Source: Thelephora terrestris
Lineage: Eukaryota; Basidiomycota; Agaricomycetes; Thelephorales; Thelephoraceae
Assembly (NCBI GenBank): GCA_015956445.1
Contig: WIUZ02000001.1
Location: 62,001 to 126,000, forward strand
DNA: 64,000 nucleotides
Direction: 5' to 3'
Shown here: positions 1,250 through 51,329 of the stretch, in pieces
How the letters are laid out: every line of letters starts with the position of its first letter
Position numbering within the stretch: the stretch's first letter is position 1
Notes under the pieces: generated by a model
Databases searched by the model: none
Told to the model about the DNA's origin: nothing
Seen by the model: the letters and a program-made list of their open reading frames with translations, nothing else
Position numbers and translations under genes: made by a program

Positions 1250-4200
1250 ATGAAGCACATATCGAAGGTGAAGCGCAAGATGTTCCCCAAAACTCCCAAG
1301 CAGCCTATCCCTTCGGAATCGCCTGCCGAGGCCAGCGCTTGGCCATCCAGCTTCCAACCCGAACAGAACTCGGGCCCTAAAGGTCGGTCGAACCTTTCCC
1401 GTCAGGATCTAGACTCAGATCTGTCCATGTTACTAGACGAAGAAGCCGGTATGGATTCAAAGATTGCGCTTCAGAGCAGGGCGGAAGAAGATCAAGAGCT
1501 TCCCGTGTCGGAAGCCGGGACACCTGGTATTGTGCTGGACGCACCTGAAGACGGGAAAGATCCCATAGGTGAGCTCTTCCGCTCCATGCGATTGGAATCC
1601 TTTCTCATTACTCTGCGCATTTTTCCTCTAGCAAAGAACCCCGGTGACACCAAAGGAGGGGAGATCGGCCCTGCAGAGTCATCGAGGGGTACGTGTCGAT
1701 GGCCTCGTGGCGTACGATGTGTTTTAACAAACTCCAGTTGCCAAGACTGCGCGCGAGGGGACATCATTTGAAGGCGCTACTGTCCACGGTGCTGCGGACG
1801 AGGACGTGCAAAAATTCAGTGCTCTCAAAGCTGTCTTGGATGTTGTCTCCGCCGATTGCGCCGATTGCGACGTTCGTTTTCAGCCTCCAGCTCAGGATTC
1901 TCTCGTTAAACCAACATCTTTGCAGGATGACGTCGCCGTCGGACAAAAGGCCAGAGGCCTCCTCCCACGTATCGTTGCATTGGAAGAAGGTTTCGACTCA
2001 CCTCCGCGTGATGTGGAGGAACTGAGGCGCCGGGATGAAGTGATACGGTATGTCACCATTCCTTCGTGAAGCACGACACTGAGCCCCCTCCAGCGAGTTG
2101 GGACGCCTTGGAGGGCAGCTGCGGTCTCTGGCCGAGAAACCTGGGCCGCGCATTGGGGAAATTTCGAAGGTACTCGAGGGCTTACGGGAGACGATCTTTG
2201 ATTACCAGGTTTGTCCATCGCCGGAGAACTCGTGCTGGTTTTGACATTGGGAACAGAAGGTGCAACAAGACGTCATCTCCAGTCAACGGCGGGGAGAGAT
2301 AGTGAGTATTTTTATTTCACACTCAAGCAAGTTTAATGACCTCTCGGCAGAGCCCAGGTCAGAACATATCCTGTTCTCATATTCTCAAGGATTGTTGTCT
2401 GATATAGACATCTGGCAGCCGAGGCGGCTATCCTCAACAATTTTCACAGTGCACAGAGAGCCGAGTATCGGCATGGCAACCGCAAAGGCTGTCTCAAGGG
2501 GACACGTGAGGCCATCCTGGATGGGATTGAACTCTGGGCAAACGACTCAGACCAATCTCCCGTCTACTGGTTGAACGGACTGGCCGGCACAGGGAAGACC
2601 ACGATTGCACAGACAATTTCCGAAAGAATGTTTGCCAGTGGCCAGCTTGGCGCCTCCTTCTTTTGCTCCCGGGACTTTGAAGACAGGAGTAATCTCGAGT
2701 TCATTTTCCCTACCTTGGCTATCCAACTTGCACGCAAATATCCCCAATTCCGATCCATCTTTGTCCCAATGGTCCAGCAGGATCCAGGAATCGCCCATGA
2801 GTCCTTGTACAACCAGATGGACAAGTTGATTGTGGGGCCCCTCAAGAAATCCAGTATCTCAACTGTCATTGTTGTTGATGCTTTGGATGAGTGCAAAGAT
2901 GAAGAGCCTGCCTCCGCAATCCTGTCTGTCCTTGGGAGATTTGTTTCAGAAATCCCAAAGGCCAAATTCTTCCTCACTGGTCGCCCAGAGCCAAGGATCA
3001 GGACTGGATTTCGCCTTCCCTTATTGGCAGAAGTCACAGATGTATTTTTCCTTCACAAAGTTGAACCAAGGCTCATCAACAGTGACATCCAGCAGTTCCT
3101 CAGGCACAGTTTTGTGGAAATTGCCAATGGTCAGTGTGGGCTAGATGGTTGGCCAACAGAGGAGGATGTGGATCACCTTTGCAAGCAGGCAGGAGGACTT
3201 TTTGTCTATGCTGTGGCAACAATCAGGTTCATTGGTCACAGGAACATTGGTCCCAGACGACAACTAGAACGACTTCTCCAGTCACCAGAGAGCACCAAAT
3301 ACCAGGGGAAGTCCAAGATAAACCCCAAAACCACATTGGATTCACTTTACATATCAATCCTTGAAGGGGGCTTTTGTGATGATGACCCAGAGTATGATTC
3401 CAGTATCCGCTCTGTCCTGGGGGCCATTGTGCTTGCTGCCAATCCTCTTTCACCTTCTTCCATCGCTACACTCCTTGGGTTCCATTCCTCAGATGTATCC
3501 CATCAATTGACATCAGTTCATTCTCTTATCCTCCAGGGAGACAATGATCACCCAGTCCAACCCTTCCACAAATCCTTTCCTGACTTCATCACTGACCCAA
3601 CTCGATGCACCAACCAGAGATTCTATGTCTTCCCTCCTCATCATCATCATGAACTTGTCAAAGGCTGCCTTGAGCTGATGAATCAAACACTGGAGAAGAA
3701 CATGTGTCAACTCCCAAATGCCATTACCAATTCTGAAGTGGGGGACTTGAAAGATAGGATCAAGAAATACATCACTCCTGCTCTGGAATATGCATGCAGG
3801 TCATGGTACAAACACCTTATCATCAATGAACACACTGTTTACCCAGCCACAATCAATTCTGCTATCGAACACTTCCTGAGGAACAAATTCTTGTTTTGGC
3901 TAGAAGTGCTAAGTGTCCTTGGAGCTGCAAGAGAAGCAGTTGATGCATTGAGAGCTGTCAAGAAGTGGTTTGAGGTATGTAAAATTTTAATTCCCAATAT
4001 TCCTAATACTTACCCATTGTGTCAGGCTTCTCCAACCCTTGACATTGTCAATGACTGCTTCCAATTTGTGACCACGTTCTTTGGGGTCATCAGTACATCT
4101 GCCCCACACATCTATCACTCAGCTGTTCCATTATCTCCCAGGACATCCATCATGTGGAAACTGTATGAACCATATGCCAACCCCCTAGTAAGGCTTGTGT

Positions 4201-5984
4201 ATGGAATCCCAACTTCGTGGGATTTGGATGCTACAACCTTCAAACATGCCAGTTACATCTGTGCTACAGCTTGGTCCCCATGCAGCAGGTTCATTGCAGT
4301 AGCTATCAAATCATCTGGTGGAATACAAATCCTAGATGCTGTAACTCTGGAACAGTTGCTTACTACAAGCCCCTTATCCCAACCACTTAGTTTTGGGCAC
4401 CTCCTATTCTCACCAAGTGGCCATTTGTTAACATATTGCATGCAAAAAGAGAGGAAAAGTTACATTGTTAGCTGGGACCTTCAAACAGGTGGCCTCATCT
4501 GTAATCTGGAGATCTACCCTGGGGAAAAATCTTATGAATCAATGACCTACTCTGGATGTGGGACAATGGTTGGGACTTTGTTCACAGATATAGATGCCTC
4601 TATCATCTGCATATGCAACATTCTCACCAGTAAAAATATAGCATCCTATCTATTCAAAGACGGTGCCACAGATATTTGGACCCATGGTGAATACCTTCGA
4701 TTTTCGACTTTGGGAGATCAAGGCATTACCATATGGGAAGCTGTATTCGATCTTGCAAATCCAGCAACAGCCGTTCAGTCCCTCTCTACCCCATCCAATA
4801 TTGACCCTTCTGCATTGGCTCTGTTTGACCATACCCTGCTCTACCTTGCCTTCTACTCTCATAATGGGCACCTTCAGGTGTGGGATATCCAGAACAATAA
4901 ACTCCTCTTAGAATCTGCAGCCAGGTTCTTATCATCATTTTCATCTGATGGTCACTTCTTTGCACATACCAACAACTCAGGGGTACAAATTTGGAAGCAG
5001 TTTCCTAGTGGTTATACACATCTCCAAACCCTTCCAGTCAAGGGCTCATATGGATCACATGGTTTACTACAATTCTCCCCCAATGGAAAATTCCTTCTTG
5101 TACAATGTTCATTGGATGCATTTCAGTTGTTTCCCACAGGAGTTTATGTAACCCCCCTCTCTGACCTCCCTGCTCAAAATCTCTACCAAGAGACTGAACC
5201 TTTTATTTTGGAATTTTCATCTGCACATACTCTGGCAGCAGCCATACGCATGAGGGGAAAAGTGGTCACAGTCATTGACCTCAGTTGTGGCCTCCCACAA
5301 CTGATCATTGATATGGACACAGAGGTCTATGCAACAAGGATCATTGAGAACACTGCTTTCATTTTTTCTAATGGAAAGGCCTCTGCTTGGAACATACCTA
5401 TCAGGGGTGGTGGTGGTGATCATAGGGCAGATGTCAGCGGAAGCATGTTCACAACAAGTCTCAAGGTCTCAGACAGACCTAAGTATACAAGATGGTGGGA
5501 TGATTCAAGTACAATTGCTGCATCAATCTCACCTGATGCCCACCACATTGCTGTTCTGGGAAATCATCGTCTGGATACCTATGACATGGCCACAGGGAAT
5601 CATCTCTATCACAATCAGTTGTGGAGCTCACCTCCAGTATGTTTTATCCCAGATGGTAATGAATCCTGGTACCTTTCCACTAGGGAACGGGTAGAAAGGA
5701 TGGCAATTGACAAAGATGGGAAACCCTGTCTCATTGAGGTGGATAAACAATCAACTGATGACTTGCCAGGAAGATACCCTTGGAAATCTACTCATGGCTA
5801 CAAAGTCACAGGTGATGGGTGGATACTCAGTCCCAGTGGAAAGCAGCTGTTATGGTTGCCCTATCATTGGCAGTTGGATGAGGAGACAAGGAAGTGGGAT
5901 GGATGTTATCTTGCATTGTTACATAATGGACTTCCAGAGCCTGTCATTCTTGACTTACAACCTGAGGAATTGCTTGTTGATTGA
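1250..5984 (+). CDS. NACHT-WD40 NLR-like protein, left copy
   Basis: This is a STAND/NLR-type signalling NTPase. The start chosen is the ATG at 1250, followed by a lysine-rich MKHISKVKRK start, a disordered acidic segment and a helical N-terminal region over several small exons (a donor after 1570 and acceptors near 1630 and 1739 preserve frame). The large exon from about 2571 encodes Walker A GLAGTGKTT, a Walker B-like VVDALDEC about 95 residues later, and an LTGRPEPRI sensor motif. The last ~550 residues form a degenerate WD40 propeller with repeated SPSG/SPDG and WD-type motifs. A 51-nt GT-AG intron (3975-4025) is in frame and free of stops, so retention would still give a full protein. 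NACHT-WD40 proteins in fungi act in non-self recognition and regulated cell death; that role here is inferred. It is convergent with the oxygenase at 6798. Confidence 0.88.
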
Positions 5985-6797
5985 TGTTTCACTCTTTCTT
6001 CTTGTACAACCCCTCCCTCTTTTAGTGTACAGTATGCTGTCCCTTCTTGGAGTTTAGCATTTGTAGGATAGTAGTTGTGTGCTCCTCAAAATCTTCACTG
6101 TGTACCCTATCAAAGCAGTGTGACAATAAGGTTTCAGTTTTTTCCCATAGTTGGTAAGTTTACACCACTCACAAGTCATCATGGAATTTTATCACTGAGG
6201 ATCAGAACTGAGGCGTTAAAGCACAGGATGTCATTCTGGGCTCAGTGATAACAGAACATCAGTTTTTGGGATATGTACTGGTGAGAAGAATGTGTGAAAG
6301 CTTGTTTTCCTCACCGGTTGTGGGTGAACATGAAAATTGAGTGCAGCAGCAGTGTACCACAGTCAATGGGCTGTGGGCACACAGAGGTTGCCTGTGTGCT
6401 GTAAGCGAGGTAGAATGTAATGTTCTCCACAAGCGGTTGGCCGCCGTGTTGGAGCCTCCACTGCCTGGATTTTCGTGGATTTTAGCCTTAGCTTGCAGTA
6501 CCATGTATCAATCTAAAGGTGGTACTATTGGTGAATGAATTAGCAAGAATTACCTCGCGAGACCACCTGATAGCCAAGGAATGGAATTATTTGCAATCTT
6601 CATCTCAGACATAGCACCAGGGACAGTACTACAGACACCTCGTGGAGATATCTTATATAAAGCAGATCAATTGTGGGTGCCTGCAATAAATCCATAAGCC
6701 AAACAGCTGAGTGACTGGCGTGAACGCATAGAACAGTGCGCGGCGAAAAAAGGGCTAAGGCCCGCCTACAAATACCAATAACTAAAAACCGGATGAA
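5985..6797. other. Convergent intergenic region, left arm
   Basis: This lies between the 3' ends of the NLR and the oxygenase. It is shared, with substitutions and small indels, with 45715-46561 in the right arm. It probably holds the 3' UTRs of both convergent genes. I see no further gene. Confidence 0.6.
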
Positions 6798-8209
6798 TCA
6801 CAGGTAAGTCTCCCGCAACCTCCGCACAATATACTCCTCCGTCGTCACCGGGTCGTACTTCTTGGGATTCCCAGGTCCGAAGCAATGAGGCAGACAAGAG
6901 ATCTCCGCGTTGAAATTCGGGTTACAGAAGAAAGCTATAGATTGACGCTTGGGAATGATGCCTTCCCCCTCGTTGATCGGCTTGAAGGGAGGGGCAACGA
7001 CACGGTGGAGAGTCGAACGGAAGAGGTCGTTGCTCCAGCGAGCGAGAAGATCGGCGGCATTGATGATAACAGTGCCAGGCTATCCGAGAATTATTGATTA
7101 ACGATAATAATGATAGAAGGTGGGAGAATGCGCTCACGATTGGGGGCGCTGGAGCGAATTCCTTCGTGGTGGGGTTTTGAACTTGAAGGCCGCCGACCTG
7201 GGGGAAGAAATTAGCGTTTGGCCAAAGATTTTAGCGAACCAATCGCTTACAGGGTCTTGGAAGAGCAGAGTTACAGTACCTGTGAATAGCGGTCAAAGAA
7301 ATTCGCTCTAGGGATGGGTAGGAAACCCACCGTAATCGGTATGGGCACCAGCACGAGCTTGACCGTCGTTGTGCAGCAAATCGGTCTTGATGGCCGGATA
7401 GTGCAACAGACGCAAGTTGTGATCCTGCGCATTGATTTTGTCCTGGAAAAAGTTCTCTTGTAAATCAAGTCCGAGAGCGACTGCTCGCATCACTCGGACA
7501 TGTAATTCGTGACACGTCTGTGAGGCAGGTTCTCAGCATCAGGGAACAGGGAAAGAACGAAGGGAACTTACCTGGAAGAATTCGAGCATAAACGCCCTGA
7601 ACCCGGGAACATCCGACTCATGGGGCCACATATTCTTCCATGTACTGCTCCAGTCACGACCAATTTCCATTGACTCCTTGTAGTCCGGGGCGGAGGCTCG
7701 GAGTCGTGCGATTTCTGTTTCGTCTTGCGAGTTAGTCACACGCTCCCGGCCCAGTTGCACGTATCCGCGATTGGAACGAGGATCCTCCCATGCAAGAGCT
7801 TGCTAGAAATGATACACCGCTTTGAGAAACCATCTACAACGGAAGATAATCGCATACCAACCTTCTTCTCGAACGGGAGTTGGAAAAACTCGTCGCTCTA
7901 AGCGTGATTCACTGAGCAATGAATTTCGTGATGAAGCGGGCCACGTACCCTTTTGAATGCCTCCTGCACGACCTTTTCGCTGATGCCGTGGTTCCCCAAG
8001 TAGACGAAACCGGTGCTTTTGAAGCCGTCGACAACCTGACGGGCAGTTTCGCGTCTCTGGGCGAATGATAAGGAGCCAAAGTTTGCAAAGTCGACAATGG
8101 GGATTCCGGAAGTGTCTACGTTGCCGGCGGACACGGTAGCCAGTGAGCGCGAGGCGACCGAGGGACGGGCAAATGCCCTGAAGGTGGTAATTCTCGCACA
8201 GGAGAACAT
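6798..8209 (-). CDS. 2-oxoglutarate/Fe(II) dioxygenase, left copy
   Basis: This is a non-haem Fe(II)/2OG oxygenase of the isopenicillin-N-synthase-like type. From the ATG at 8209, an Arg/Ser-rich leader (FRAFARPSVASRSLA) that could be a mitochondrial presequence precedes the DIOX_N-like segment IPIVDFANFGS. The iron-binding first half HTDYG appears near 7340, the distal histidine in STLHRVV near 7005, and the 2OG-binding RxS as PKRQS near 6950. Introns with GT-AG ends separate at least seven exons; for example, acceptor GCTTAG precedes SDEFFQLPF. Typical substrates of fungal members (secondary metabolites, gibberellin-like or amino acid derivatives) cannot be inferred. It is convergent with the NLR and was co-duplicated with it. 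No inactivating change was seen in this copy, so it is the better candidate for the working gene. Confidence 0.85.
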
Positions 8210-8302
8210 CGTACGAGAGAGAGTTATGGAAAGAGGGAGTCAAGCTGTTATCTTTCTGGGCGTTTGACGTCAAGCAGTTTTAGGCAAGTAAGCGCTGGAT
8301 CA

Positions 8303-8879
8303 ATCGACGATTTTCTCCGTTCCTGAATCCGAGTCGTTTAACGGGAATCCAACAACCCTATTCTCGCTGTTCCTTTTAACCATGCAAATATTCACACGCT
8401 GGATTGCTTTTTTCCCAAGCCATGGCTTTCGATTATATTACCATCAATGTACACTGATCATGTAACGGAGAGGGTGATTTTTACCACTGGATGCTCCAAA
8501 GCTTTAAGCTGCGTGGCAATCCTCGGATCATTCCAATTTCCCTCCCTACACATCTGCTGCCGTTCTTTATTCGCACTCCGGACCCATCAATATGGAACAT
8601 TCGATTCGTTCCGGCTGGTCTGGGGTAGCTGGGGATAGTGTGGGGTGAACGTGGGGTCTTGATTAGTAGCGAGCGATGTGCGGGGCAACTGAGACGACTT
8701 CACCTGTACGGTCTACGGTAGATGAGTGGATGGATGGATGCCGAATCCCGATGAACTGCACAGGGCTCACGGAGCGCTGATCTGGATGGCCGCCAGTTAT
8801 GTGTTCCTGGACTACTGCGCTCAAACTCCTCCATCCCCTTCCACCGCTTCAATAGATACGCCGCTCCCTCGAAAAATCG
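8303..8879. other. Intergenic, nothing recognised
   Basis: Single-copy sequence immediately inside the left arm. It probably contains the divergent promoters of the oxygenase (-) and the gene starting near 8880 (+). No gene or repeat was seen. Confidence 0.5.
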
Positions 8880-11485: not shown

Positions 11486-11759
11486 GGTTGGCCGGATTCT
11501 CACCTATTTATTTATGATGCACAATTATTACCATTAACCACGCACTGTATCACGTACCTACGGTGTGCGACTGACAGCCTCACCGTTCATACACATGATT
11601 GATATCGAACAAAAACTACTGCGAGGAAGCGGGAGAAATTGGAAACTGTATATCATGCAAAAAATCGTAATGGGTTCGATGATGACAGTAATACCACCAC
11701 CCGATGCGATGCTACGTATCTGACCAAACGTGACCAGGGTATGTGACAACAACAAAAGA

Positions 11760-15671: not shown

Positions 15672-18600
15672 TCAGTGCCGCTCGCTGTTGAGGTTTGCAC
15701 GCCTAAAGCAAAAGGCGAAAGTCAGAAAACATCGAAGACGGAAACCGGGAATTAAAAAAACAAAGGATGACCGGAATCCACTTACTCTCTCAGCGAATCG
15801 TACAAATACTTGTAGCTCTTCAAGTTCCCCTTCAACCTTCTGATATCCAGACTGTACGTGTCCTCCAAGCGATCCAACCTCGTCAGCTCGACAGAGAACC
15901 TAACCTCTCCACCTTGGTCTTGGCTCTGGTCGCCGTACAACGTGTTCGAGGGAGATTGGTCGTTCGTCGGATTTGTCAACGACGGGTTGGATTCGTTGTT
16001 ACCGGGGCTGCTACTCTCCGAGTCGAGGGGCTGGGAACCAGAGTTGGACACTTGCGAAGATTGGCGTCTCATCAGTAGACCTTTGAGCATTCCTCCAGAC
16101 GACGAAGGCACAGGCAGTCCACGCTTGTCAACCTAAACCCACGAGGGTGGATCAGCGCCCCGTCCTAAAAAAAAACATCGATCGCGAACACTCACCCCAC
16201 CACTCGCGGCGCTACCGATCATGGTGAAGGCCGCAAGCCCGTTTCCACCTTGTCCATCCTTGAGCGCGACACCCGTACTCCCGATCTTTCTTTTCTTCGG
16301 CCGAACACACCGATATTTATACTGACTTTCCTCCTGAACCTCCAATCCCATCTCCACGAGGACGTCCAAAACATGTCTCATCACCTCCGGAGGGTTGCCG
16401 CTGGTAATCGTCGTCTGGTCCATGGCGCCGTGATGCACCCTCAAGATGTTCTTCGCCGCTGGAGAGAGAATGAAACTCCTCTTGAGCGGGTTGGTGATGC
16501 TCTTGTCCGTAGCAACGGATGGGGTACGGTTGGGGTGCGCAGGTGCCGGAGGAACGGCCGAGCGGGGAGTCGACAACTCCGGGTTTACTGTGTGAGGATG
16601 CACAGTCATCGAGGGAGAGGTCACCCCGTTGATCGTGCTCGTCGACGCGTTGAGGGGAACTTCTCGTGAGGATGGTGTCGGAAGTGACTTTTCAGTTATC
16701 GGTTGTTCTTCCTCTGGTACCTTGCCCTTACTCTTCGTCCTAAACCACTCCATCACCTTCTTCGCCTTACTCGTGCTCGCCGCGTTGCCCACACCCGGTC
16801 TGGCCACCGCCGGGAACTTACTATCGCGATGCTGGTGAGGTGGTAAGACCGCCGTGTTCGGCGGTTCCTGGTTCACGAGCGAATCCGACGGCTCACGAGT
16901 TTTGTCAACAGCCGAATCCTTTTCTTTCGACGACGGTTCCCGTGAAGCTGCCCGGCCTGACTTCGTCCGCTGTTTGATGGTCCTCGAGAAAGGCTCGACC
17001 ATGACCGTCAACGTGTTCCTCCGACTTTTCTTCGACGACGTCGCACTGGCACTCGAGCTGTTGACCGGACTTAACAACTGGGGCGACCTCCCTCCTTCAT
17101 TTTGCCTGCCCATAGTCGAACTCTGCGATTGGTTCATCACCCTCCCCGACTGAGCGTTGAGCGTAGGCGTCACTTGCATCGTGGAGGGTCTCCGAGGCCT
17201 CGTCGAGCCGCTAGCGTCAGAGGGAACATCGCTCTCGGAAGCTTGCCTCGAACTCATCGTCGTCGGGCCGTTCATGGTCGACTTCGTCTTGCCGTTCGTC
17301 GAGTCCGCCGTGGACCGAGACCCCCCAAAGAGCTTCGCGAATCCGATCTTGTCCAACGACGTTCCAGTCCTGTGGGTCTTGGCCGATTGGCTTCCCGTCC
17401 CTTTGATACTCATGTGTAAATCGCTTACCCCATTTGTCTCCGGATGAGGGGATGTGGGAGAGAGCGGTGCGGTGACTTCGATCGTAGGCTGAGCGGCCTG
17501 TGAAGAAGAGGTATCGGGAGGGACGGTGTACCCTCTGGATGCTGCCCTAGGTCGTGGCGTGTTGTTCTGCGGGGTGGGAGGTAGAGCTTTGATCTTGGGG
17601 ATGTCGCTAGCGGTGGGAGTCGATGGAGATGAGGTAGTGTGGGAAGCAGGCTTCTTCGGCGTCGTGTCGTTCCTCGATTGGGAAACCCTCCTTGTCCCGT
17701 TCGTCCTCGACTCTGACGCCTTGACCGGGTAGATCGGCTGTTGCTTTTCTTGAGAAGGTTGGCGTTGGGACGACTGTGACTGAGAGAGTTGTTGAGACTC
17801 GGAGGCGGGACTATCATTATACTCCACCTGAATCGTGTGCCTGAAATCATCCTTCCTCCTCCTCTGAGTTTGATCTTGCGGCGGAGCACCCGCGTTCGAC
17901 ACTTTCCGGCCACCGTTGGCTGTGGTCGTGGTGGCCTTCGAACTCGAGGCGGGTGTAGCATCGGTCTTGGAAACGCTGTCCAACCTTCTTCTGGCGTTCT
18001 CGTCGACGAGTCCGTCACTGACAGGGGAGATCACAAAGTCAGCGTCAGGTTTATCCCGCGAAGGTGTCTGCGCGAAGGGATCCTCATCCACACCCAAGGG
18101 AGAAGCGGTAGGTAGGACGATCTGCGAAGTGGCTCCTCTACGCGAGGGCACCGTGGCGTTGACCTGCTGCTGCGAAGGGGGAGAAGGGTACACGGATTGA
18201 TCGGTTGAAGTCTCGTACAACGGTACTTGCTGTGGCTGGTGAGACCCACTGTAGTCCCGGTGTGATCTGCTGCGGGTGGTGGAAGATGGAAGGACTCCGA
18301 CCGAGTTGGCATACCCATCCGCTCGAGAGGATTGACTTCTGGCCATCCGTTGGTTGTCCGCAGCGGTAGCGGCGGCCTTCATCTGTTTCTGATAGGCTAA
18401 TCTCTTTTGCTGATGCTGCTCCATCGCTGCGTGCTCCAAGTCTCCAAGGGTGCGGTTGAAAAGCGCGGCGCTGGGTCGGAGCCAACGGTGATTCATCACA
18501 ATCTCAATGCCGGCTCGTTTTTTGGGATCTGGAACAAGCATGAGAGATAAAAGATCCCTGGCCTCGGCTGAGATATAGTCGGGGAACGAGAGGGGGGTGT

Positions 18601-39800: not shown

Positions 39801-41440
39801 GTACGATTCCGGGTAGGTTTTCGTGTTCTAGTAGGATGGTTCTTGTTCCCTGAAGGGTGTGATTCTGTCTAGGGAGACACTACTGCGGGACTTGTCGCTC
39901 GTTTACTCGGAACAGTCTTTGGCGTTTTTGTGGGTGCCGCAATCTGGTTCGAATCTAATGTCCCGATCGGAGCTTCGGATCATTGATCAGCATTGCTCTA
40001 GGTATATTTCCACTGGCACCGGCAGGGGGAACGCGTACGGATTGGCTGTTGCGTGTGGTGTGCTGTTCCCCTTGATGATGTTCGGGAGGCTTTATTGGCC
40101 GGGCCCTCCAATGACGAACATCTTGTTCTGTGTCACCGCCATGCTAGTAAGCTCCTCCGATGGCAACAGTAAAGCGTGATGTTTATTCTCACTAGGTCAT
40201 TGGTTATTCTTGGTCCAACACACACCCTAATACCCTATCGACGTTTCCGCATTGGGGTGTTGATCTTGCCATTGTAAGTCTCTTCTATATTCGAGCAGCC
40301 GGGCAGGACGTTTGATACTTTACTTACAGAGGCGTTTGATCCTCGTGGCGGTTGGGGTCGCAGGAGCCTTGTAAGATTTTGTTTACTTCCTCGTCCCCTT
40401 CGTGTTTTCAGAAGTGATTGATTTTTCCTCAAAGCTTCTTCTCGTTCCTCCCACCGTCTACTACCTTGCGCAAGTATGAACGAACCTCACTCGCGACCGC
40501 TGCTGGGGAACTCGGAGAAATCTACTGTTCTATCGTTTCCTTTGCGAACACGGGCGAACACACAGACCATGATATACAAGACATCGCCCAAAGCCTTATT
40601 GCGATTCGAGCCAAGCTAAAGCGGTCGTTGGTATTGAGACAAAACATAGTATTCGAGGTGAGATACACCCTGGGTTGGGTTCAACAGGAGTTTCTAATGG
40701 CTCTATTAAAGTTCTCCTTGAGAGGAAGATGGCCTGCGGAGCGGTACCAGAAGATTTTGGACATCCAACTGTGCGTTAAACTCGGCCACTAAACGAAACA
40801 CCCTTTCCTCAACCCTCCATACCACAGGAAAATCGCTTACTACTTATCTTATCTCATGTCTGTTGTGGTTCAGTTCGAACCCGCGTGGTCTCGAGCGTTC
40901 TTGAGGCGATGTCGATTCTTGGATTCAGAATTCCAAGGGGAGGTACTTGCGGTCATCAGTGAGTACTGATCATTTGGGTTTTATAGCTCCCTCTCAAACG
41001 CGTTGCATTTCAACTAGGTCTGATCTCCACCGCGCTTCGAAGTGGTAGTCCGATACCGCAGATCACGCCTTGTCCATTGTTAGATCGATTCATGAGGCAC
41101 CATCTTGGGTTGAACGTCTCCCGAGTTGAAGACGAGGAAGAGTTTAACTTCCCGAAGACCGCGACTGCCGAATTATTGGAAGACGAACAGTACCTGTACG
41201 GTGTCTTTCGCCACCTCCGTTGTGCTCCTCTATGTCCTGATACTCTTTTCAAGGTACTTCTGTGTCGGAGTCTCCACGGCCTTCACCATCGTCAATAACT
41301 TGGACAAGCTGATGGTTGCTACCAAAGAGCTTGTGGGAGAGCAGTACCATATTCACGGGATCGGGATCGTTCAAAAAGGAGGGGATGAACCCCCTCCGAC
41401 GCCTGGGTCCATGTATCCCAACCCCTCGAAGGAGGTTTGA
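36829..41440 (+). CDS. FUSC/ER-transporter-like membrane protein
   Basis: This large multi-pass protein is of the fungal 'ER transporter 6TM N-terminal' / aromatic-acid-exporter (FUSC, Bre4-like) type. The ATG at 36829 starts MKTDDLPREDEIVVEP, an acidic disordered head. The first membrane block has LKTVIRCSLAAWVSVVLMIIGAV, then LFVTISWAWACLGIKLASL and AVFLFVGTAVLLYIKASRP, joined through several short introns. A soluble middle (about 37836-38920) holds HSGLAIFFAATVFPSTISSF, a Ser/Pro/His-rich linker and a charged helical stretch. The second block near 39780-40440 contains further membrane segments and GDTTAGLVARLLGT-like sequence. The C-terminal domain includes TAAGELGEIYCSIVSFANT and finishes VATKELVGEQYHIHGIG. 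Transport substrate is unknown. It ends 55 bases from the convergent ARMT1-like gene. Confidence 0.82.
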
Positions 41441-41495
41441 AAGCAGGTCTCGTGTTTCGCGTGTTGCATTTGTATGTATACGTATTCTCTGTAAT

Positions 41496-43820
41496 CTATA
41501 CTTCGTACGACATCTCGTCCATGTGGAGAGGCCTTGAAAAAGTCTTGGGCACGAATGATATCAACGCATACCTAACGAAGAGTGAGATAAGTTGGCGAAT
41601 TAGTGGAGGAGGGAATGGTGAGGATGGATGGAACGTACCGTCCATCATACCTCCACTTTCTATTATCCGCCTCGTCTAGCTCGTCCGCGACACCTTGATC
41701 GACCCCCACTACTACATCGGCCTTATTGGTTCGAAGGCTAAGGATTGGGAATGAGCCCGCGAGAGGGCCGATCGCCCTCTCGAAGGGAGTGGAAGCCGGC
41801 CATCGGATATCCCCGGTGAGCCTGTTTTATGGCCAAAAGTTTAGTAACCAAGAAGATGGCCTAATGCTGGGATGGAACTTACTTTCGGTAGCTGCAAGAA
41901 TATTGATGACAAGGAACAGGTCAGATCTCGCGTGGAAGGGGAAAAAGTTCTAATTCTACATACTTGAGATCACCCTATAAATTGAATTTTTGCGTGTCAT
42001 CTTTTTATCAAAGAAAAGACGTTTTTTATACCGTACCTTGAATATGACCAACGAACTATTCCTCAAGTCTTTCCATAGCTCCTGGTCCCTCTCCTGCATA
42101 TCCCAATACGGATACGGCGTAGTCCAAAACTCCGCTGACCTGCCCACCCCCCCTTTGCCACCCAAAGGGGTGTCAGTTGGTACAGACAAACGGAAGGTTC
42201 CATCAGTGATATAGTTTGACCATCTCGTTGCCATGGCCTTGAGATGTTCCTTTGCCTCTTCACTCGGAACTGAACCGAAGAACGATGGATCGAGGAGGGA
42301 CGAAAAGGTTGCGAGGAAATCTGGAGGCGTGACGTCGGAGACGAACCATGGGATCAACTTTGGACTGGTAAGAGTGGACGATGTGAATGATCCATAGTTT
42401 TATGGGTCACAGGTTTTTTGGCTTCAACTCACTGGAAGACCGCTTTTGAGAAGTATGGGGTGTACGTCACAAGAAAATCTGCGAGAACGAGGTCCGTGAA
42501 GAGCTGGAAGGTTTTGTCAAGTTACCGAAAGATGTACTATTTAGCTTTCGCGCAGGGCTTCAGCGTGATACGGACCTCAAATCCAGAGTTGTCCAAGACA
42601 ATATCAACCCTCGCGTCCTTCAAGGTTTGGACGTGGGACCAGACGGCTTCCTGATTTGATAACGGTTTAGGTGGAGCAGGGGGTTTGAAATAACAACCAA
42701 GGTACCGAACCTGATCATCGTGGAGAATGAATTGTTTGCGTGATTCTTGTGCCTCACGGCCAACGCTTTGTAACCTGCCAATGTCCTCCACGGTCATGTG
42801 GGTCAAGAGAGAGAGGTCTGTCGCGTTTCCCCTAGGATAGCATTGATTGATTGCCAAGAGCACTTGATTAGTTTGAGACATACCAAAGGCACATCTGAAT
42901 CATCTCCTTGAATAGAACGGATAACTTCGTGGGATCCGATATTAGATTTCCCTTCTCAACCTCAATTTCGTGCATAGTCGATGCGAGCTCTGCACGAGAT
43001 GTCAGCATGCCAACTCTTGTGTGATCGATGGAAAGTCGAACGGTAAACTCCGTTGCCGCTCTTTTGGAAAGTGTCTATCTTTTGGGAGACAAAGGGATCA
43101 TAGTTCTCTAGAGCTTTTGATTCGATAAAGTAGCTCCGAACCAAACGGTACCTGTAGAGTGGTCAGCGGTTTAACACTAAGATGACAGGGTGTGGCAGAC
43201 ATACAAGTAGCACCTAGGATCCAAGAGTTGAGCATCAAGGCCAAAACACGGCGTATCGAGGCCACTGACTCTGCAAACAACCAGGGGGCGGTAAACCAGG
43301 TGCCTTTCCCTTGTGCCTCTAGGGCGGCCAGCTCTTGATTGTAAAGTCCAATGGAGGGTTCGCCGTCATCAGCTAGAGGCCTACCCGAAACGCTTAGGAT
43401 TTAGCCTTGCATTGCAGAGGCGGTCAATAGCTGATGAATCGGACCGTACAGGAGCGGCTTTTCTCTGCCCATCTCGTATTTTAGCTTGCTGATCTTCTCG
43501 ATGATACCTTTGGCGGCCGCGATTCGTTCCTCTGCGACGATCGGAGAGAGCTCGTGCGGTTGAGTCGCTAAATCATGTCCCATGCGATAGAGATTGTCGA
43601 TGATTGAGGTGAGGATCACGGGCCATCGTCTAATGAGCGTGTCGTAGCTAGGATTTGTGTTCGGCATTAACCAAGAGGGCCATCGAACGGAATGTACTGT
43701 GGCTCACGAAAAGCTGAAGAAAGGCGAAAGTGAGCAGAAGAGTAATGGGAGATGAAATAGCTTCGTGCAGTACCTCTTTGTGTCCGTGGGGTCCCACGGA
43801 GGATATGGTGGATCGAACAT
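41496..43820 (-). CDS. ARMT1: DUF89 damage-control phosphatase (ARMT1/Hrt2-like)
   Basis: This metal-dependent DUF89 phosphatase is thought to hydrolyse reactive sugar phosphates such as fructose-1-phosphate; human ARMT1 was first described as a glutamate methyltransferase. The start chosen is the ATG at 43820 (MFDPPYPPWDPTDTK), since fungal relatives begin near this PPY/PxDP motif; an upstream in-frame ATG exists. Ordered motifs are LIRRWPVILTSIIDNLYR, GKGTWFTAPWLFAECYLYR, the metal-binding DIVLDNSGFE, DLVLADFLVT, KLIPWFVSDVTPPDF, SSLVIFKGDLNYRKLTGD, and KADVVVGVDQG near the end. Two exons are only 9 nt long (43205-43213 and 41883-41891); each restores conserved residues (ECYL and NYRK). The stop is at 41496 after a short last exon. 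About ten exons in all. Confidence 0.9.
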
Positions 43821-44210
43821 CTGAAAGGTGTGATGATCGACGAAATCAAAGTCGGGTGCAGACTCTGCCTTCTTAGCGCTCACCATCAAATGTTGGATGG
43901 CGAACTGTAACGACCTCATTTTCGCACTCGACTCTCCACAGATTGGGATTAGGAAGAGGGGTGAGCTCAGGGATATGATGCGGAGTGTCATGATAATGCA
44001 ACCTCCGAGTCTTCACAACTCTCAGCCACAGTTGTCCCACCGCCGGCCTTCCCAAGAAAAGAACGACAGCCCTATGTTTATTCAGTCAATTCAGGAAGCG
44101 GGACGATGGGAGTTTCCCAATCCCGAGGAACGACACCAAAGTAGCCTGTTCCTAGACTACCGATTTCCCATCCACCCCCACCACGAGCGACATCTCGAAA
44201 GTCAAAACTC
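43821..44210. other. Upstream region of ARMT1-like gene
   Basis: The promoter side of the phosphatase gene lies next to the inner edge of the right duplication arm at about 44211. No gene seen. Confidence 0.4.
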
Positions 44211-44299
44211 TCCAGCGCTTACTTGCCTAAAACTGCTTGACGTCAAACACCCAGAAAGATAACAGCTTGACTACCTCCTTCTATAACTCTCTCGTGACG

Positions 44300-45714
44300 A
44301 TGTTCTTCTGTGCGAGAGTTACCACCTTCAGGGCATTTGCCCGCCGTCTCTCGGTCGCCTCGCGCTCGCTGGCTACCATGTCCGCCGGCAACGTAGACAC
44401 TTCCGGAATCCCCATTGTCAGCTTTGCAAACTCTGGCTCCTTATTATTCGCCCAGAGACGCGAAACTGCCCGTCAGGTTGTCGACGGCTTCAAAAGCACC
44501 GGTTTCGTCTACTTGGGGAACCACGGCATCAGCGAAAAGGTCGTGCAGGAGGCATTCAAAAGGGTACGTGACCCGCTTCACCTCGAAATTCGTCGCTCGA
44601 TGAAATACACCTAGAGCGACGAGTTTTTCCAACTCCCGTTCGATAAGAAGGTTGGTATGCGATTCACTTCCATTGCAGGTGGTTTCTCAAAGGGGCGGAT
44701 TATTTCTAGCAAGCTCTTGCATGGGAGGATCCTCGTTTCAATCGCGGATACGTACAGCAGGGGCGGGAGCGCGTGGCCAACTCGCAAGACGAAAAGGAGA
44801 TCGCACGACTTCGAGCCTCCGTCCCGGACTACAAGGTGTCAATGGAAATTGGCCGTGACTGGAGCAGTACATGAAAGAATATGTGGCCCCATGAGTCGGA
44901 TGTTCCCGGGTTCAGAGCGTTTATGCTCGAATTCTTCCAGGTAAGTTCCCTTTGTTCTTTCCCTGTTCCCTGATGCTGAGAACCTGCCTCACAGACGTGT
45001 CACGAATCACACGTCCGAGTGATGCGAGCAGTCGCTCTCGGACTTGATTTACAAGAGAACTTTCTCCAGGACAAAATCAATGCGCAGGATCACAACTTGC
45101 GTCTGATGCACTATCCGGCCATCAAGTCCGATTTGCTACACAACGACGGTCAGGCTCGTGCAGGTGCTCATACCGATTACTGTGGGTTCCCTACCTATTG
45201 CTCGAGCGAATTTGTTTGACCGCAATTCACAGGGACTGTAACTCTGCTCTTCCAAGACCCTGCAAGGGACGGGTTCGTTCGGATCTTGGGCCAAACACTA
45301 ATCTCTTCCCCCAGGTCGGCGGTCTTCAAGTTCAAAACCCCACCACGAAGGAATTCGCTCCAGCGCCCCCAATCGTGAGCGCATTCTCCCACCTTCTATT
45401 ATTATTATCGTTAATCAATAATTCTCGGATAGCCTGGCACTGTTATCATCAATACCGCGGATCTTCTCGCTCGCTGGAGCAACGACCTCTTCCGTTCGAC
45501 TCTCCACCGTGTCGTTGCCCCTCCCTTCAAGCTGATCAACGAGGGGGAAGGCATCATTCCCAAGCGTCAATCTATAGCTTTCTTCTGTAACCCGAATTTC
45601 AACGCGGAGATTTCTTGTCTGCCTCATTGCTTCGGACCTGGGAATCCTATGAAGTACGACCCGGTGACGACGGAGGAGTATATTGTGCGGAGGTTGCGGG
45701 AGACTTACCTGTGA
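44300..45714 (+). pseudogene. 2OG/Fe(II) dioxygenase, right copy, probably broken
   Basis: This is the mirror copy of the gene at 6798-8209, with the same exon order and many identical stretches (GFVYLGNHGISEKVV, HNLRLMHYPAIK, IPKRQSIAFF). Three differences suggest decay. The codon for Trp in WSSTWKN of the left copy is TGA here (44872-44874). The residue after HTDY changes from Gly to Trp through the splice junction. The donor after LLFQDP reads GCAAGG where the left copy has GTAAGC. The N-terminus has one extra codon (FARRLS against FARPS). The last exon remains open to 45714. Stop read-through or exon skipping cannot be excluded, but loss of function is the simplest reading. Confidence 0.75.
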
Positions 45715-46561
45715 TTCATCCAGTTTTTAGTCATTTGTATTTGTAGGCGGGCCTTAGCCCTTTTTTTCGCCGCGCACTGTTTTATGCATTCACACCAGTT
45801 ACTCAGCTGTTTGGCTTATGGATTTATTGCAGGCATTTAGAATTGATCTGCTTTATATAAGATATCTCCACGAGATGTTTGTGGTACCGTCCCTGGTGCT
45901 ACGTCCGAGATGACAATGGCAAGGACCTCCATATATCTGCGATCGGGTGGTCTCGCGAGCTGATTCTCGCCGATTCATCCACCAATATTACCACGTTTAG
46001 ACTGATACATGGTACCGAAAGCTAAGGCTAAAATCTACGAAAATCCCGGCAGTGGAGGCTCTCACAACAACTTGTGGAGAACATTATTTTCTACCTCGTT
46101 TACAGCGCACAGGCAACCTCTGTGTGCCCACAGCCAATTGATTGTGGTACACTGCTGCTGCACTCAACTTTCACATTCACCCACAACTGACCTGAGGAAA
46201 AATGCAGTCCTTCCAGGTAAATGAGCTTCACACATCCTTCTCACTAGTACATATCTCAAAAACCAATGTTCTGTCATCGCTGAGCTCAGAATTACATCCA
46301 GTGATTTTACACCTCCGTTCTGATCCTCAGTGATAAAATTCACAATGACTCCTTGTGATCGGTGTAAACTTACCAACTATCAGAAAACAAGACTATAGCC
46401 TTACTGTCACACTGCTTTGATAGGGTAACATAGTGAAGATTTCAAGGAACACACAACTGCTATCCTACAAATGCTAAACTCCAAGAAGGGACAGCCTCCA
46501 GGAAACCAAAAAGGGGAGGGGTTGTGCAAGAAGGAAGAGTGAGGCATCAATCAACAAGCAA
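45715..46561. other. Convergent intergenic region, right arm
   Basis: Counterpart of 5985-6797, carrying the probable 3' UTRs of the oxygenase copy and the right NLR. It has several small indels relative to the left arm. No separate gene. Confidence 0.55.
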
Positions 46562-49500
46562 TTACTCTGGTTGTAAGTCAAGAATGACAGGCTCTGGAAG
46601 TCCACCATGTAACAATGCAAGATAACATCCATCCCACTTCCTTGACTCCTCATCCAACTGCCAATGATAGGGCAACCATAACAGATGCCTTCCATTGGGA
46701 CTGAGAATCCACCCATCACCTGTGACTTCATAGCCAAGAGTGGATTTCCAAGGGTACCTCCTTGGCAAGTTCCTAGTTAATTGTTCATCCTCCACCTCAG
46801 TGAGATAGTATTCCCCATCATTGCCAATTGCCATCCTTTCTATCCGATATCTAGTGGAAATGTACCAGGACTCATTCCCATCTGGGATGAACCATACTGG
46901 AGGCAATCTCCACAACCAATTGTAATGAAGATGATTCCCTGTGGCCATGTCATAGATTTCCAGATGATTTCTTCCCAGAACAGCAATGTACTGGGCATCA
47001 GGTGAGATTGATGCAGAAATTATATCTGGATCATCACACAACACTGGGGAATACACTGGAGAATCAGGTCTGTCTGTGACCTTAAGACTTGTTATGAACA
47101 TGCTGTTGCTGATGTCTGCCCTATGATCACCATTACCACCTCTGATAGGTATGTTCCAAGTAGAGATCTTTGCATTAGAAAAAATGAAAGCAGTGTTCTC
47201 AATGATCCTTGTTGCATAGACCTCTGTGTCCATATCAATGATCAGTTGTGGGAGGCCACAACTGAGGTCAATGACTGTGACCACTTTTCCCCTCATGCGT
47301 GTGGCCACTGCCAGAGTATGTGCAGAAGAAAATTCCAAGATAAAATCTTTAGTCTCTTGGTGGAGAGTTTGAGCAGGGAGGTCAGAGAGGGGGGTTTCAG
47401 AAACTTCTGTGGGGAATAACTGGAATGCATCCCATGAACATTGTACAAGAAGGAATTTTCCATTAGGGGAAAATTGTAGTGGTCCATGTGGTCCATATGG
47501 GTCCTTGACTGGAAGTGTTTGAAGATGTGTATAACCACTAGGAAACTGCTTCCAAATTCGTACTCCTGAGTTGGTGGTATGTGCAAAGAAGCACCCATCA
47601 GGGGAAAATGACAACAACCTCCCAGCTGCAGATTCTAAGAGGAGTTTAGCGTTCTGGGTGTCCCACACCTGAAGGTGCCCATTATCAGAGTGGAAGGCAA
47701 GGTGGAACAGGATATGGTTGAAAGAAGATGAGGCAGTGTTAGTGTCATGTGGGATAGAGAGGGACTGGACAGCGGTTGCTGGATTTGCGAAAGTAAACAC
47801 AGCTTCCCATATAGTAATGCCTTGATCTTCCAAGGTTGAAAATTGAAGGTATTCACCATGGGTCCAAATATTTGTGGCTCTCCCTTTGAATGGATAGGAT
47901 GCTATATTTGTACCAGTGAGAATGTTGCACGTGCAGATGACAGAGGCATCTAGATCCGTGAACAAAGTCCCAACCATTGTCCCACATTCAGAGTAGGTCA
48001 TTGATTCATAAGGTTTTGTCCCATAGTAGATCTCCAGATTACAGATAAGGCCACCTGTTTGAAGGTCCCAGCTAGCAATGTAACTTGTCTCCTCTTTTCG
48101 CATGCAATATGTTAACAAATGGCCACTTGGTGAGAATAGGAGGTGCCCAAACCTAAGTGGTTGGGATAAGGGGCTTGTAGTAAGCAACTGCTCCAGAGTT
48201 ACAGCATCTAGGATTTGTATTCCACCATATGATACATTGGCCACTGCAATGAACCTGCTGCATGGGGACCAAGCTGTAGCCCAGATCTTACTGGCATGTT
48301 TGAAGGTTGTAGCATTTGAATCCCATGAGGTTGAGATTCCATACACAAGCCTTACTAGGGGGTTGGCATATGGTTCATACAGCTTCCACATGATGGATGT
48401 CCTGGGAGATGATGGAACAGCTGAGTGATAGATGTGTGGGGCAGATGTACTGATGACCCCAAAGAACATGGTCACAAATTGGAAGCAGTCATTGACAATG
48501 TCAAGGGTTTGAAAAGCCTGACAGTCATTGACAGTGTCAAGGGTTGGAGAAGCCTGACACAATGTGTGAGTATGAGGAGTATTGGGAATTAGAATTTGAC
48601 ATACCTCAAACCACTTCTTGACAGCTCTCAATGCATCAACTGCTTCTCTTGCAGCTCCAAGGACACTTAGCACTTCAAGCCAAAACAAGAATTTGTTCCT
48701 CAGGAAGTGATCAATAGCAGCATTGATTGTGACTGGGTAAACATTGTGTTCTTTGGAAAGGTGTTTGTACCATGACCTGCATGCATATTCCAGAGCAGGA
48801 GTGATGTATTTCTTGATCCTATCTTTCAAGTCCCCCACTTCAGAATTGGTAAAGGCATCTGGGAGTTGACACATGTTCTTCTCCAGTGTTTGATTCATCA
48901 GCTCAAGGCAGCCTTTGACAAGTTCATGATGATGGTGAGGGGGGAAGACATAAAATCTCTGGTTGGTGCATCGAGTTGGATCAGTGATGAAGTCAGGAAA
49001 GGATTTGTGGAAGGGTCGGACTGGGTGATCATTGTCTCCCTGGAGGATAAGAGAATGAACTGATGTCAATTGATGAGATACATCTGAGGAATGAAAGCCT
49101 AGGAGTGTAGCAATGGAAGAAGGTGAAAGAGGATTGGCAGCGAGCACAATGGCCCCCAGGACAGAGCGGATACTGGAATCATACTCTGGGTCATCATCAC
49201 AAAAGCCCCCCTCAAGGATTGATATGTAAAGTGAATCCAATGTGGTTTTTGGGTTTATCTTGGACTTCCCTTGGTATTTGGTGCTCTCTGGTGACTGAAG
49301 GAGTCGTTCCAATTGCCGTCTGGGACCAATGTTCCCATGACCAATAAACCTGATTGTTGCCACAGCATAGACAAAGAGTCCTCCTGCCTGCTTGCAAAGG
49401 TGATCCACATCCTCCTCTGCTGGCCAACCATCTAGCCCACACTGACCATTGGCAATTTCCAGAAAACTGTGCCTGAGGAACTGCTGGATGTCACTGTTGA

Positions 49501-51329
49501 TGAGCCTTGGTTCAACTTTGTGAAGGACAAATATATCTGTGACTTCTGCCAATAAGGGAAGGCGAAATCCAGTCCTGATCCTTGGCTCTGGGCGACCAGT
49601 GAGGAAGAATTTGACCTTTGGGATTTCTAAAACAAATCTCCCAAGGACAGACAGGATTGCAGAGGCAGGCTCTTCATCTTTGCACTCATCCAAGGCATCA
49701 ACAACAATGACAATTGAGATACTGGATTTCTTGAGGGGCCCCACAATCAACTTGTCCATCTGGTTGGACAAAGACTCATGGGCAATTCCTGGATCCTGCT
49801 GGACCATTGGGACAAAGATGGATCGGAATTGGGGATATTTGCGTGCAAGTTGGATAGCTAAGGTGGGGAAAATGAACTCGAGATTACTCCTGTCTTCGAA
49901 GTCCCGGGAACAAAAGAAGGAGGCGCCAAGCTGGCCACTGGCAAACATTCTTTCGGAAATTGTCTGTGCGATTGTGGTCTTCCCCGTGCCGGCCAATCCG
50001 TTTAACCAGTAGACAGGAGATTGGTCAGAGTCGTTTGCCCAGAGTTCAATCCCATCCAGGATGGCTTCGCGTGTCCCCTTGAGACAGCCTTTGCGGCTGC
50101 CATGCCGATACTCGGCTCTCTGTGCACTTTGAAAATTGTTGAGGATAGCCGCCTCGGCTGCCAGATGTCTATGTCAGACACCAATCATTGAGAGTATGAG
50201 AACAGGATATATTCTGACCTGGGCTCTGCCGAGAGGTCATTCAACTTGCTTGAGTGTGAAATAAAAATACTCACTATCTCTCCCCGCCGTTGACTGGAGA
50301 TGACGTCTTGTTGCACCTTCTGTTCCCAATGTCAAAACCAGCACGAGTTCCCCGGCGATGGACAAACCTGGTAATCAAAGATCGTCTCGCGTAAGCCCTC
50401 GAGTACCTTCGAAATTTCCCCAGTGCACTGCTCAGGTTTCTCGGCCAGAGGCCGCAGCTGCCCTCCGAGGCGTCCCAACTCACTGGAGGGGGCTCAGTGT
50501 CGTACTTCACGAAGGAATGGTGACATACCGTATCACTTCATCCCGGCGCCTCAGTTCCTCCACATCACGAGGAGGTGAATCAAAGCCTTCTTCCAATGCA
50601 ACGATATGCGGGAGGAGGCCTCTGGCCTTTTGTCCGACGGCGACGTCATCCTGCAAAGATGTTGGTTAAACGAGAGAATCCTGAGCGGGAGGCTGAAAAC
50701 GAACTTCGCGATTGGCGCAATCGGCGGAGACAACCTCCAAGATAGCTTTGAGAGCACTGAATTTTTGCATGTCCTTGTTCGCGGCACCGCGGTTGACAGC
50801 GGCGCCCTCAAATGATGTCCCCTCGCGCGCAGTCTTGGCAACTGGAGTTTGTTAAAACACATCGTACGCCACGAGGCCATCGACACGTACCCCTCGATGA
50901 CTCTGCAGGGCCGATCTCCCCTCCTTCGGTGTCACCAGGGTTCTTTGCTAGAGAAAAAATGGTTATGGTGATGAGAAAAGATTTCAATCCCATGGAGCGG
51001 AAGAGCTCACCCATGGGATCTTTCCCGTCTTCAGGTGCGTCCAGCACAATACCCGACGTCCCGGTTTCCGACACGGGAAGCTCTTGATCTTCTTCCGCCC
51101 TGTTCTGAAGCGCAATCTTTGAATCCATACCGGCTTCTTCGTCTAGTAACATGGACAGATCTGAGTCTAGATCATGACGGGAAAGGTTCGACCGACCTTC
51201 AGGGCCCGAGTTCTGTTCGGGTTGAAAGCTGGATGGCCCAGCGCTGGCCCCGGCAGGCGATTCCGAAGGGATAGGCTGCTTGGGAGTTTTGGGGAACATC
51301 TTGCGCTTCACCTTCGATATGTGCTTCAT
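46562..51329 (-). CDS. NACHT-WD40 NLR-like protein, right copy
   Basis: Mirror paralogue of 1250-5984, with its ATG at 51329 (MKHISKVKRK) and the same upstream small exons. The main exon carries GLAGTGKTT and VVDALDEC with only a handful of changes from the left copy in about 400 residues. The WD40 half differs far more (for example IATAWSPCSRFIAVA flanks, SLSIPHDTNTASSSFNH, LLSFSPDGCFFAH). The protein stops five residues earlier (DLQPE). The in-frame 51-nt intron is at 48554-48604. Just downstream, a 36-nt tandem duplication adds a second acceptor-like CAG at 48518. A Plavaka-type transposon lies 511 bases upstream of the start, so regulation may differ from the left gene. No frame-breaking change was seen. 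Confidence 0.86.

What the first reader, a model, noticed from the sequence alone, without database searches (positions are those of the whole stretch)
2571..49996. NTPase halves nearly identical, WD40 halves strongly diverged between the two NLRs
Reading the two proteins side by side, the first ~400 residues of the NACHT exon differ at roughly a dozen positions. The WD40 half shows runs of clustered differences (for example around the SLST/SLSI and GVYVTPL/EVSETPL segments) at a visibly higher rate. Both remain open. This fits diversification of a recognition surface with a conserved or gene-converted engine, as known for fungal allorecognition NLRs such as the HET-D/E group.
Basis: partly seen in the sequence, partly recalled or inferred. 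Interest (0 to 1): 0.75.

Follow-up and report, generated by a model that had tools for sequence, protein, structure and literature searches.

The report
Duplicated fungal immune receptors, diverging sensors
Two copies of a fungal immune-receptor gene have kept the same energy-driven switch but changed much of the propeller-shaped sensor, and the pattern points to different selection on the two parts rather than to copying of the switch between genes; this is the usual logic of such receptors, seen here in a type without the shuffled, near-identical repeats of the textbook cases.

Summary
In detail: 12 of 400 residues differ at the start of the NTPase exon, 117 of 572 in the WD40 region. Both genes are open, eight-exon models of 1457 and 1468 aa in an inverted ~8-kb duplication that also copied a 2OG-oxygenase gene, decayed in arm B. 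Silent divergence is alike in NACHT and WD40 (dS 0.137, 0.170; p=0.25), omega is not (0.15, 0.98; p=8e-9). So NACHT is held by purifying selection and was not gene-converted as a whole. The WD40 shows no internal stop where 7.9 are expected. One top-face position, matching HET-E codon 7, differs in 8 of 12 blades (0 of 575 rotations); matches of codons 9, 25 and 27 are not enriched by themselves. A site-class test for positive selection gives p=7e-7, but p=0.015 when multi-nucleotide changes are allowed. It is not a HET-D/E member: no HET domain found, no internally conserved repeats. Relaxed constraint, or a tract donated by an unseen paralogue, is not excluded; three collection scans found no relatives.

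The parts
1250..5984 (+). NLR copy A: exons 1250-1568, 1632-1688, 1738-1871, 1926-2047, 2094-2208, 2257-2301, 2353-2357, 2408-5984; 1457 aa; possible further in-frame intron 3975-4025
   Evidence: splice sites kept in copy B; no transcript data
46562..51329 (-). NLR copy B: same eight exons, 1468 aa, stop 5 codons earlier than in A, 36-nt in-frame tandem duplication at 48486-48559
2408..3732 (+). NPHP3_N/NACHT NTPase region of A (P-loop GLAGTGKT, Walker B VIVVDALDE; motif names recalled); dS 0.137, dN 0.014
   Evidence: Pfam NPHP3_N 8.7e-29, NACHT 1.4e-07
48844..50168 (-). NTPase region of B
4246..5984 (+). WD40 sensor of A, about 12 degenerate blades by motif scan (two propellers inferred from the number); dS 0.170, dN 0.119
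46562..48297 (-). WD40 sensor of B
5191..5370 (+). conserved block inside the WD40: 4 of 60 codons with a replacement against 113 of 512 in the rest, p=0.004 (post hoc); overlaps 128 identical bp at 5246-5373
955..1328 (+). upstream region and start of exon 1, nearly identical in the two copies (noncoding 955-1249: 2 of 295 sites differ)
5985..6780 (.). 3' spacer, 112 of 787 aligned sites differ; noncoding yardstick beside the WD40
303..8299 (+). arm A of the inverted segmental duplication
44211..58647 (-). arm B of the duplication, interrupted by a transposon
6798..8209 (-). 2OG-Fe(II) oxygenase gene of arm A, 361 aa, open
   Evidence: Pfam DIOX_N 5.8e-25, 2OG-FeII_Oxy 1.8e-19
44300..45714 (+). 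2OG-oxygenase copy in arm B, decayed: in-frame stop, and a GC instead of GT donor in its fifth intron
   Evidence: donor; stop
51841..58208 (-). Plavaka DNA transposon in arm B only, terminal inverted repeats, about 0.5 kb upstream of the NLR B start; insertion after the duplication is inferred
   Evidence: Pfam Plavaka 1.1e-81 for ORF 53343-54341; ends and short target duplication

Best explanation
Two open paralogous fungal NLR genes (NPHP3_N/NACHT NTPase plus C-terminal WD40 propellers) arose by an inverted ~8-kb segmental duplication. Shown: since then silent sites diverged at about the same average rate in NTPase and sensor, the NTPase was held almost unchanged by purifying selection, and the sensor took amino-acid changes at or near the neutral rate overall while staying open. 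Inferred: the sensor average mixes a conserved propeller scaffold with a class of positively selected surface positions on the top face, chiefly the residue two before R1 at the start of strand a (the match of HET-E codon 7), so that A and B now bind different ligands but drive the same switch. Inferred from family knowledge: ligand binding by the propellers releases the NACHT switch, which oligomerises and activates the N-terminal region, ending in a defence or cell-death response.
For: dS 0.137 [0.092-0.187] vs 0.170 [0.126-0.215]; dN 0.014 vs 0.119. ML, kappa 4.7: omega 0.147 vs 0.98; equal t p=0.25, equal omega p=8e-9. Codon permutation: silent difference p=0.31, replacement difference 0 of 5000. 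WD40 open although 7.9 stops are expected from its mutation load; coding indels of the NLR 6 of 6 in frame (3 of them in the WD40) against 3 of 6 in the 3' spacer, while the neighbouring oxygenase duplicate decayed. M1a-M2a in the WD40: p=7e-7; p=0.0145 with multi-nucleotide changes allowed, about 30% of codons at omega about 4. Replacements clustered (0 of 2000). Offset -6 differs in 8 of 12 blades against 0.20 elsewhere (0 of 575 rotations); offsets -6 and -4 together 11 of 24 (4 of 575); these plus the b-c turn 30 of 102 (14 of 575). Offset -6 against neutral expectation: P=0.0006, 0.003, 0.020 at t=0.317, 0.414, 0.6. Strand a to strand b changes less: 0.11 vs 0.24 in the 10 strong-motif blades, 0.15 vs 0.23 in all 12.
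Against: Average WD40 omega is not above 1 (NG86 0.70 [0.51-0.98]; ML 0.98, p=0.89 against 1). Its replacement rate is a little below the spacer rate (p=0.028). Adjacent differences are in excess in the WD40 and in the noncoding spacer (0 of 1000 shuffles each), which inflates site-class tests; with that allowed p is 0.015, and 0.05 in the last third alone. Offset -4 (3 of 12; 262 of 575 rotations), +12/+14 (7 of 24; 113 of 575) and the b-c turn (157 of 575) are not enriched by themselves; offset -5, conserved in HET-E, is not conserved here (4 of 12; 6 of 13 with anchors from A alone, against 7 of 13 at -6). At t=0.6 the four positions together fit neutrality (18 of 48, P=0.33). Silent divergence is patchy. 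No third sequence; no usable structure.
Confidence: 0.66

Rival explanations
1. Relaxed constraint: after duplication the sensors drift near neutrality, limited only by the need to fold, and the NTPase stays conserved because any activity needs it. No diversifying selection.
For: Overall WD40 omega near 1; the N-terminal exons are also loose (NG86 0.51) and their syn:nonsyn ratio does not differ from that of the WD40 (p=0.35); the site-class evidence drops to p=0.015 with multi-nucleotide changes; with a high neutral rate (t=0.6) the four top-face positions are not in excess.
Against: No internal stop in the WD40 against 7.9 expected, in-frame indels, scaffold strands depleted of change and offset -6 above neutral expectation.
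Confidence: 0.27
2. Mosaic origin: part of the WD40 and spacer (4626-5151, perhaps to about 6650) in one copy was donated by a third, more distant paralogue, so its divergence is older than the rest. This can hold together with selection on the sensor.
For: Silent divergence is overdispersed (0 of 1000 simulations as uneven; 6 of 1000 for the large exon alone); 0.30 and 0.24 in bins 4626-4887 and 4890-5151 against 0.06-0.07 in the bins on either side. NACHT vs 4741-5190: equal t rejected, p=0.001. Adjacent differences in excess in WD40 and spacer, not in NACHT.
Against: Over the whole WD40 the silent rate does not differ from NACHT; the last third (5371-5984) has ordinary dS 0.142 and the highest dN, 0.158. 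It does not explain the blade-position signal.
Confidence: 0.22
3. Gene-converted engine: recent conversion between A and B erased differences in the NTPase half only.
For: Low amino-acid divergence; two short patches of low silent divergence, 2913-3168 and 3678-3957.
Against: NACHT dS equals that of WD40, spacer and oxygenase gene and exceeds that of the 5' flank plus introns (p=8e-5); the 2931-3168 patch carries 6 replacement differences.
Confidence: 0.04
4. Assembly artefact: the copies are two alleles of one locus placed twice.
For: Both copies lie in one window in inverted orientation.
Against: Matches end at 303/58647 and at 8299/44211, and about 36 kb of other sequence lies between; one oxygenase copy is decayed and a transposon sits in one arm.
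Confidence: 0.03

Closest known systems
HNWD allorecognition NLRs HET-D/HET-E/HET-R of Podospora anserina
   Same: NACHT NTPase followed by a WD40 sensor; changing sensor; the most changed offset here matches HET-E codon 7 on the propeller top face; perhaps two propellers (about 12 blades here; two 7-blade propellers modelled for HET-E in PMC12222747, passages)
   Different: No HET domain found, no near-identical repeats, no sign of repeat shuffling; matches of codons 9, 25 and 27 not enriched by themselves; allorecognition role unknown
NACHT-WD NLRs of agaricomycete fungi (1,589 NLR hits in 22 species, Dyrka et al. 2014, PMC4986451, passages)
   Same: Architecture; WD repeats without high internal conservation, as in most (21.6% of WD-repeats have it, same paper); N-terminus without a Pfam name, common in Basidiomycota (PMC9815663, passages)
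   Different: No difference known, but no direct comparison was made: none of the collections searched holds fungal genomes
Plant NLR paralogues with conserved NB-ARC and fast LRR (recalled)
   Same: Same division of selection between engine and sensor; recalled, not tested
   Different: LRR instead of WD40, NB-ARC instead of NACHT

Membership tests
Fungal NACHT-type NLR (STAND NTPase) | NACHT/NPHP3_N NTPase domain | tested here: met
   Copy A: NPHP3_N 8.7e-29 (101.3 bits, cut-off 24.8), NACHT 1.4e-07 (31.9 bits, cut-off 26.7); copy B from its TTG: NPHP3_N 5.7e-22, NACHT 21.9 bits, under its cut-off
Fungal NACHT-type NLR (STAND NTPase) | C-terminal superstructure-forming repeats | tested here: met
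   Several WD40 propeller models, E down to 1.6e-12, all under their curated cut-offs except ANAPC4_WD40 in B, which sits at it (22.9 bits); about 12 blades by motif scan
Fungal NACHT-type NLR (STAND NTPase) | N-terminal effector or signalling domain | tested here: inconclusive
   About 296 aa before NPHP3_N in copy A with no best Pfam stretch there at E<=0.5
HNWD (HET-D/E group) | N-terminal HET domain | tested here: not met
   No HET family among 12 matches for residues 1-788 of copy A
HNWD (HET-D/E group) | WD repeats over 80% identical to each other | tested here: not met
   No direct repeat of 18 nt or more in the WD40 DNA of A; blades of A 11% identical on average, 28% at most
HNWD (HET-D/E group) | Diversification at four codons per repeat (7, 9, 25, 27) | tested here: inconclusive
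   Match of 7: 8 of 12 blades; of 9: 3 of 12; of 25 and 27: 7 of 24; the mapping rests partly on a recalled repeat consensus
HNWD (HET-D/E group) | Role in heterokaryon incompatibility | not testable with these tools
   Needs genetics
Known bacterial anti-phage defence proteins | Match to a PADLOC model | tested here: not met
   No match at E<=0.001 for the large-exon proteins of A and B

The most novel reading that the evidence does not exclude
Fungal NLR sensors without internally conserved repeats diversify by segmental duplication and point substitution at the same top-face position (R1-2) that HET-E diversifies by repeat shuffling: the same binding ring reached by two mutational routes. 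(Lowered from 0.42 after re-reading, where the neighbouring offset -5 is nearly as changed as -6 with anchors from A alone.)
Probability: 0.38. Interest if true: 0.55.

Novelty: new member of a known kind. Interest (0 to 1): 0.4.

Why it matters
The best-described diversification of fungal NLR sensors is that of internally conserved repeat arrays, which are a minority (about 1/6 of repeat domains, PMC9815663, passages). This pair is an ordinary, degenerate-repeat sensor with yardsticks in the same duplication (introns, spacer, a decayed neighbour gene). It shows engine conservation by selection rather than by conversion, and it gives a testable list of candidate ligand-contact positions.

Tried and rejected
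Gene-converted NTPase: rejected for the exon as a whole. HET-D/E membership: rejected. Structure prediction of the WD40 (611 aa, mean pLDDT 33.8) and of its first half (331 aa, 37.9): not usable, no fold search made; some strands of the second model fall where the motif scan puts strands a, b and c in clear blades, which is weak support only. Relatives: none in viral contigs or in bacterial/archaeal genome contigs; no own genome held. Solved structures: none for the NTPase profile at E<=0.1; for the WD40 two hits, E=0.075 (a WD40 protein, ATG16L1) and 0.55. GENECONV was not run; silent-site overdispersion and longest identical runs were used instead. WD40 sub-regions a, b, c and the conserved block were drawn after seeing the divergence profile, so their p values are post hoc; several regions and offsets were tested without correction.

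The blade scan masks differing residues, which can push differences to unscored offsets. Anchors from A alone and B alone agree with the masked scan at 9 of 12 blades; those 9 give 6 of 9 at offset -6 (2 of 575 rotations), 8 of 18 at -6 and -4 (15 of 575), 14 of 36 at all four offsets (5 of 575). All A-alone anchors give 7 of 13 at -6 and 6 of 13 at -5; all B-alone anchors 7 of 12 and 5 of 12. Weak anchors 169 and 227 were dropped in a second count (7 of 10, 1 of 575). An anchor at residue 7, before the domain, was left out of the counts.

Papers: passages only of PMC4986451, PMC9815663, PMC2873952, PMC12222747, PMC1805685, PMC3419727; others in search listings only. The species is unknown, so the genes could not be looked up by name; the listings (20 of 1,094 shown; 10 of 14 shown) showed no study of such a pair.
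Full report
What is there. The window is fungal and basidiomycete-like (a Plavaka transposase; short GT-AG introns); the species is not known. The two NLRs are not isolated ORFs. They lie in an inverted segmental duplication: 736-8299 pairs with the reverse complement of 44211-51840 (91.4%), and 303-738 with 58647-58209 (86.4%); about 36 kb of other sequence lies between. Arm B carries a 6.4-kb Plavaka element with terminal inverted repeats and a short target duplication, absent from arm A. Each arm holds one NLR and, convergent to it, one 2OG-Fe(II) oxygenase gene, open in A (361 aa) and decayed in B (in-frame stop; GC donor). Each NLR has eight exons with splice sites kept in both copies, 1457 aa in A and 1468 in B. 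A further in-frame 51-nt intron at 3975-4025 is possible.

The observation. 400 codons from 2571: 12 amino-acid differences. WD40 region 4246-5984: 117 of 572. The contrast is real (p=2e-23 for replacement sites).

Conversion or selection. NG86: NACHT dS 0.137, dN 0.014, ratio 0.10; WD40 dS 0.170, dN 0.119, ratio 0.70 [0.51-0.98]; N-terminal exons 0.083, 0.042, 0.51; the linker 3733-4245 0.064, 0.044, 0.69. Codon ML with kappa 4.7: NACHT 0.147, WD40 0.98; equal neutral divergence not rejected (p=0.25), equal omega rejected (p=8e-9). Silent yardsticks in the same duplication: 5' flank 0.053, NLR introns 0.058, 3' spacer 0.160 (K2P), oxygenase dS 0.097 and introns 0.134. NACHT is as diverged at silent sites as the spacer, the WD40 and the oxygenase gene, so it was not homogenised as a unit. 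The tract that looks homogenised, or unusually constrained, runs from the upstream region into exon 1: 2 differences in 295 noncoding sites at 955-1249, P=1.8e-11 at the average silent rate of 0.105. Silent divergence is patchy over the arm (0 of 1000 simulations as uneven), with a high tract at 4626-5151; a donated tract there is a live rival.

Relaxed or selected sensor. Against mere decay: no internal stop in the WD40 where 7.9 are expected from its mutation load (B only loses the last five codons); NLR coding indels 6 of 6 multiples of three, 3 of them in the WD40, against 3 of 6 in the spacer; and an oxygenase neighbour that did decay. For positive selection: M1a-M2a p=7e-7, reduced to p=0.0145 when multi-nucleotide changes are modelled, and p=0.05 for the last third alone. 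Adjacent differences are in excess in the WD40 and in the spacer but not in NACHT or the oxygenase gene, so the stricter figure is the one to use. Replacements are clustered and spare a block at 5191-5370 (4 of 60 against 113 of 512 codons, p=0.004, post hoc).

Where the changes fall. In HET-E four codons per repeat are under strong positive selection, 7 and 9 in the d-a loop, 25 and 27 in the b-c turn, flanking conserved 8 and 26 (PMC1805685, passages). WD40 top-face hotspots in general are R1-2, R1 and D-1 (PMC3419727, passages). I placed blade anchors with all differing residues masked, giving 12 blades, and counted differences by offset from the F of the FSPDG-like motif. Offset -6, the match of codon 7 or R1-2, differs in 8 of 12 blades (rest of the domain 0.20; 0 of 575 rotations); with two weak anchors dropped 7 of 10 (1 of 575); with the nine anchors found by all three scans 6 of 9 (2 of 575). 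The matches of 9, 25 and 27 are not significant by themselves (3 of 12; 7 of 24). Offset -5 is not conserved as in HET-E (4 of 12). With anchors from A alone, -6 has 7 of 13 and -5 has 6 of 13, so the signal may be a loop rather than a single residue. In the first clear blade Y to K and C to W flank a conserved I. The mapping of codon numbers to offsets uses a recalled repeat consensus, and masking has a bias described under Tried and rejected.

How it most likely works. By family knowledge, ligand binding to the propellers opens the NACHT switch, which oligomerises and fires the N-terminal region. A conserved engine, a shared upstream sequence and an altered binding ring suggest two receptors with different ligands and the same output. 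Ligand, output and expression are untested.

Novelty. Selection on fungal NLR sensors is already published, best described for internally conserved repeats (PMC4986451, PMC9815663, PMC2873952, passages). This is a new member of a known kind; its interest is that the sensor is of the type without near-identical repeats.

Noticed in passing
51841-58208: Plavaka DNA transposon with terminal inverted repeats about 0.5 kb upstream of the start of NLR B, absent from arm A; it could have changed expression of B.
   Followed up: partly
1250-5984: Third-position GC falls along NLR A from 0.58-0.59 (exons 1-7 and start of the large exon) to 0.39 at the 3' end, while the oxygenase gene has 0.63 and a kinase ORF 0.65; 1-kb GC is 0.44-0.46 over 3001-7000 and 0.44-0.45 over 46001-49000.
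   Followed up: partly
61803-62321 and about 62624-63447: Two neighbouring palindromic, MITE-like elements with inverted repeats and similar ends, CACTGGGGGCA; bounds of the second read by eye, its right end not seen in full.
   Followed up: no
48486-48559: 36-bp tandem duplication in NLR B that seems to copy the acceptor side of the putative intron matching 3975-4025 of A.
   Followed up: partly
17583-17860 and 43951-44211: 71% similarity between part of a protein-kinase ORF and the sequence that starts at the inner breakpoint of arm B; possibly tied to how the duplication arose.
   Followed up: no
8300-44210: The stretch between the arms holds ORFs matching a ubiquitin-conjugating enzyme, protein kinases, an Msb1/Mug8-domain protein and a putative ER transporter, and a tRNA.
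   Followed up: no
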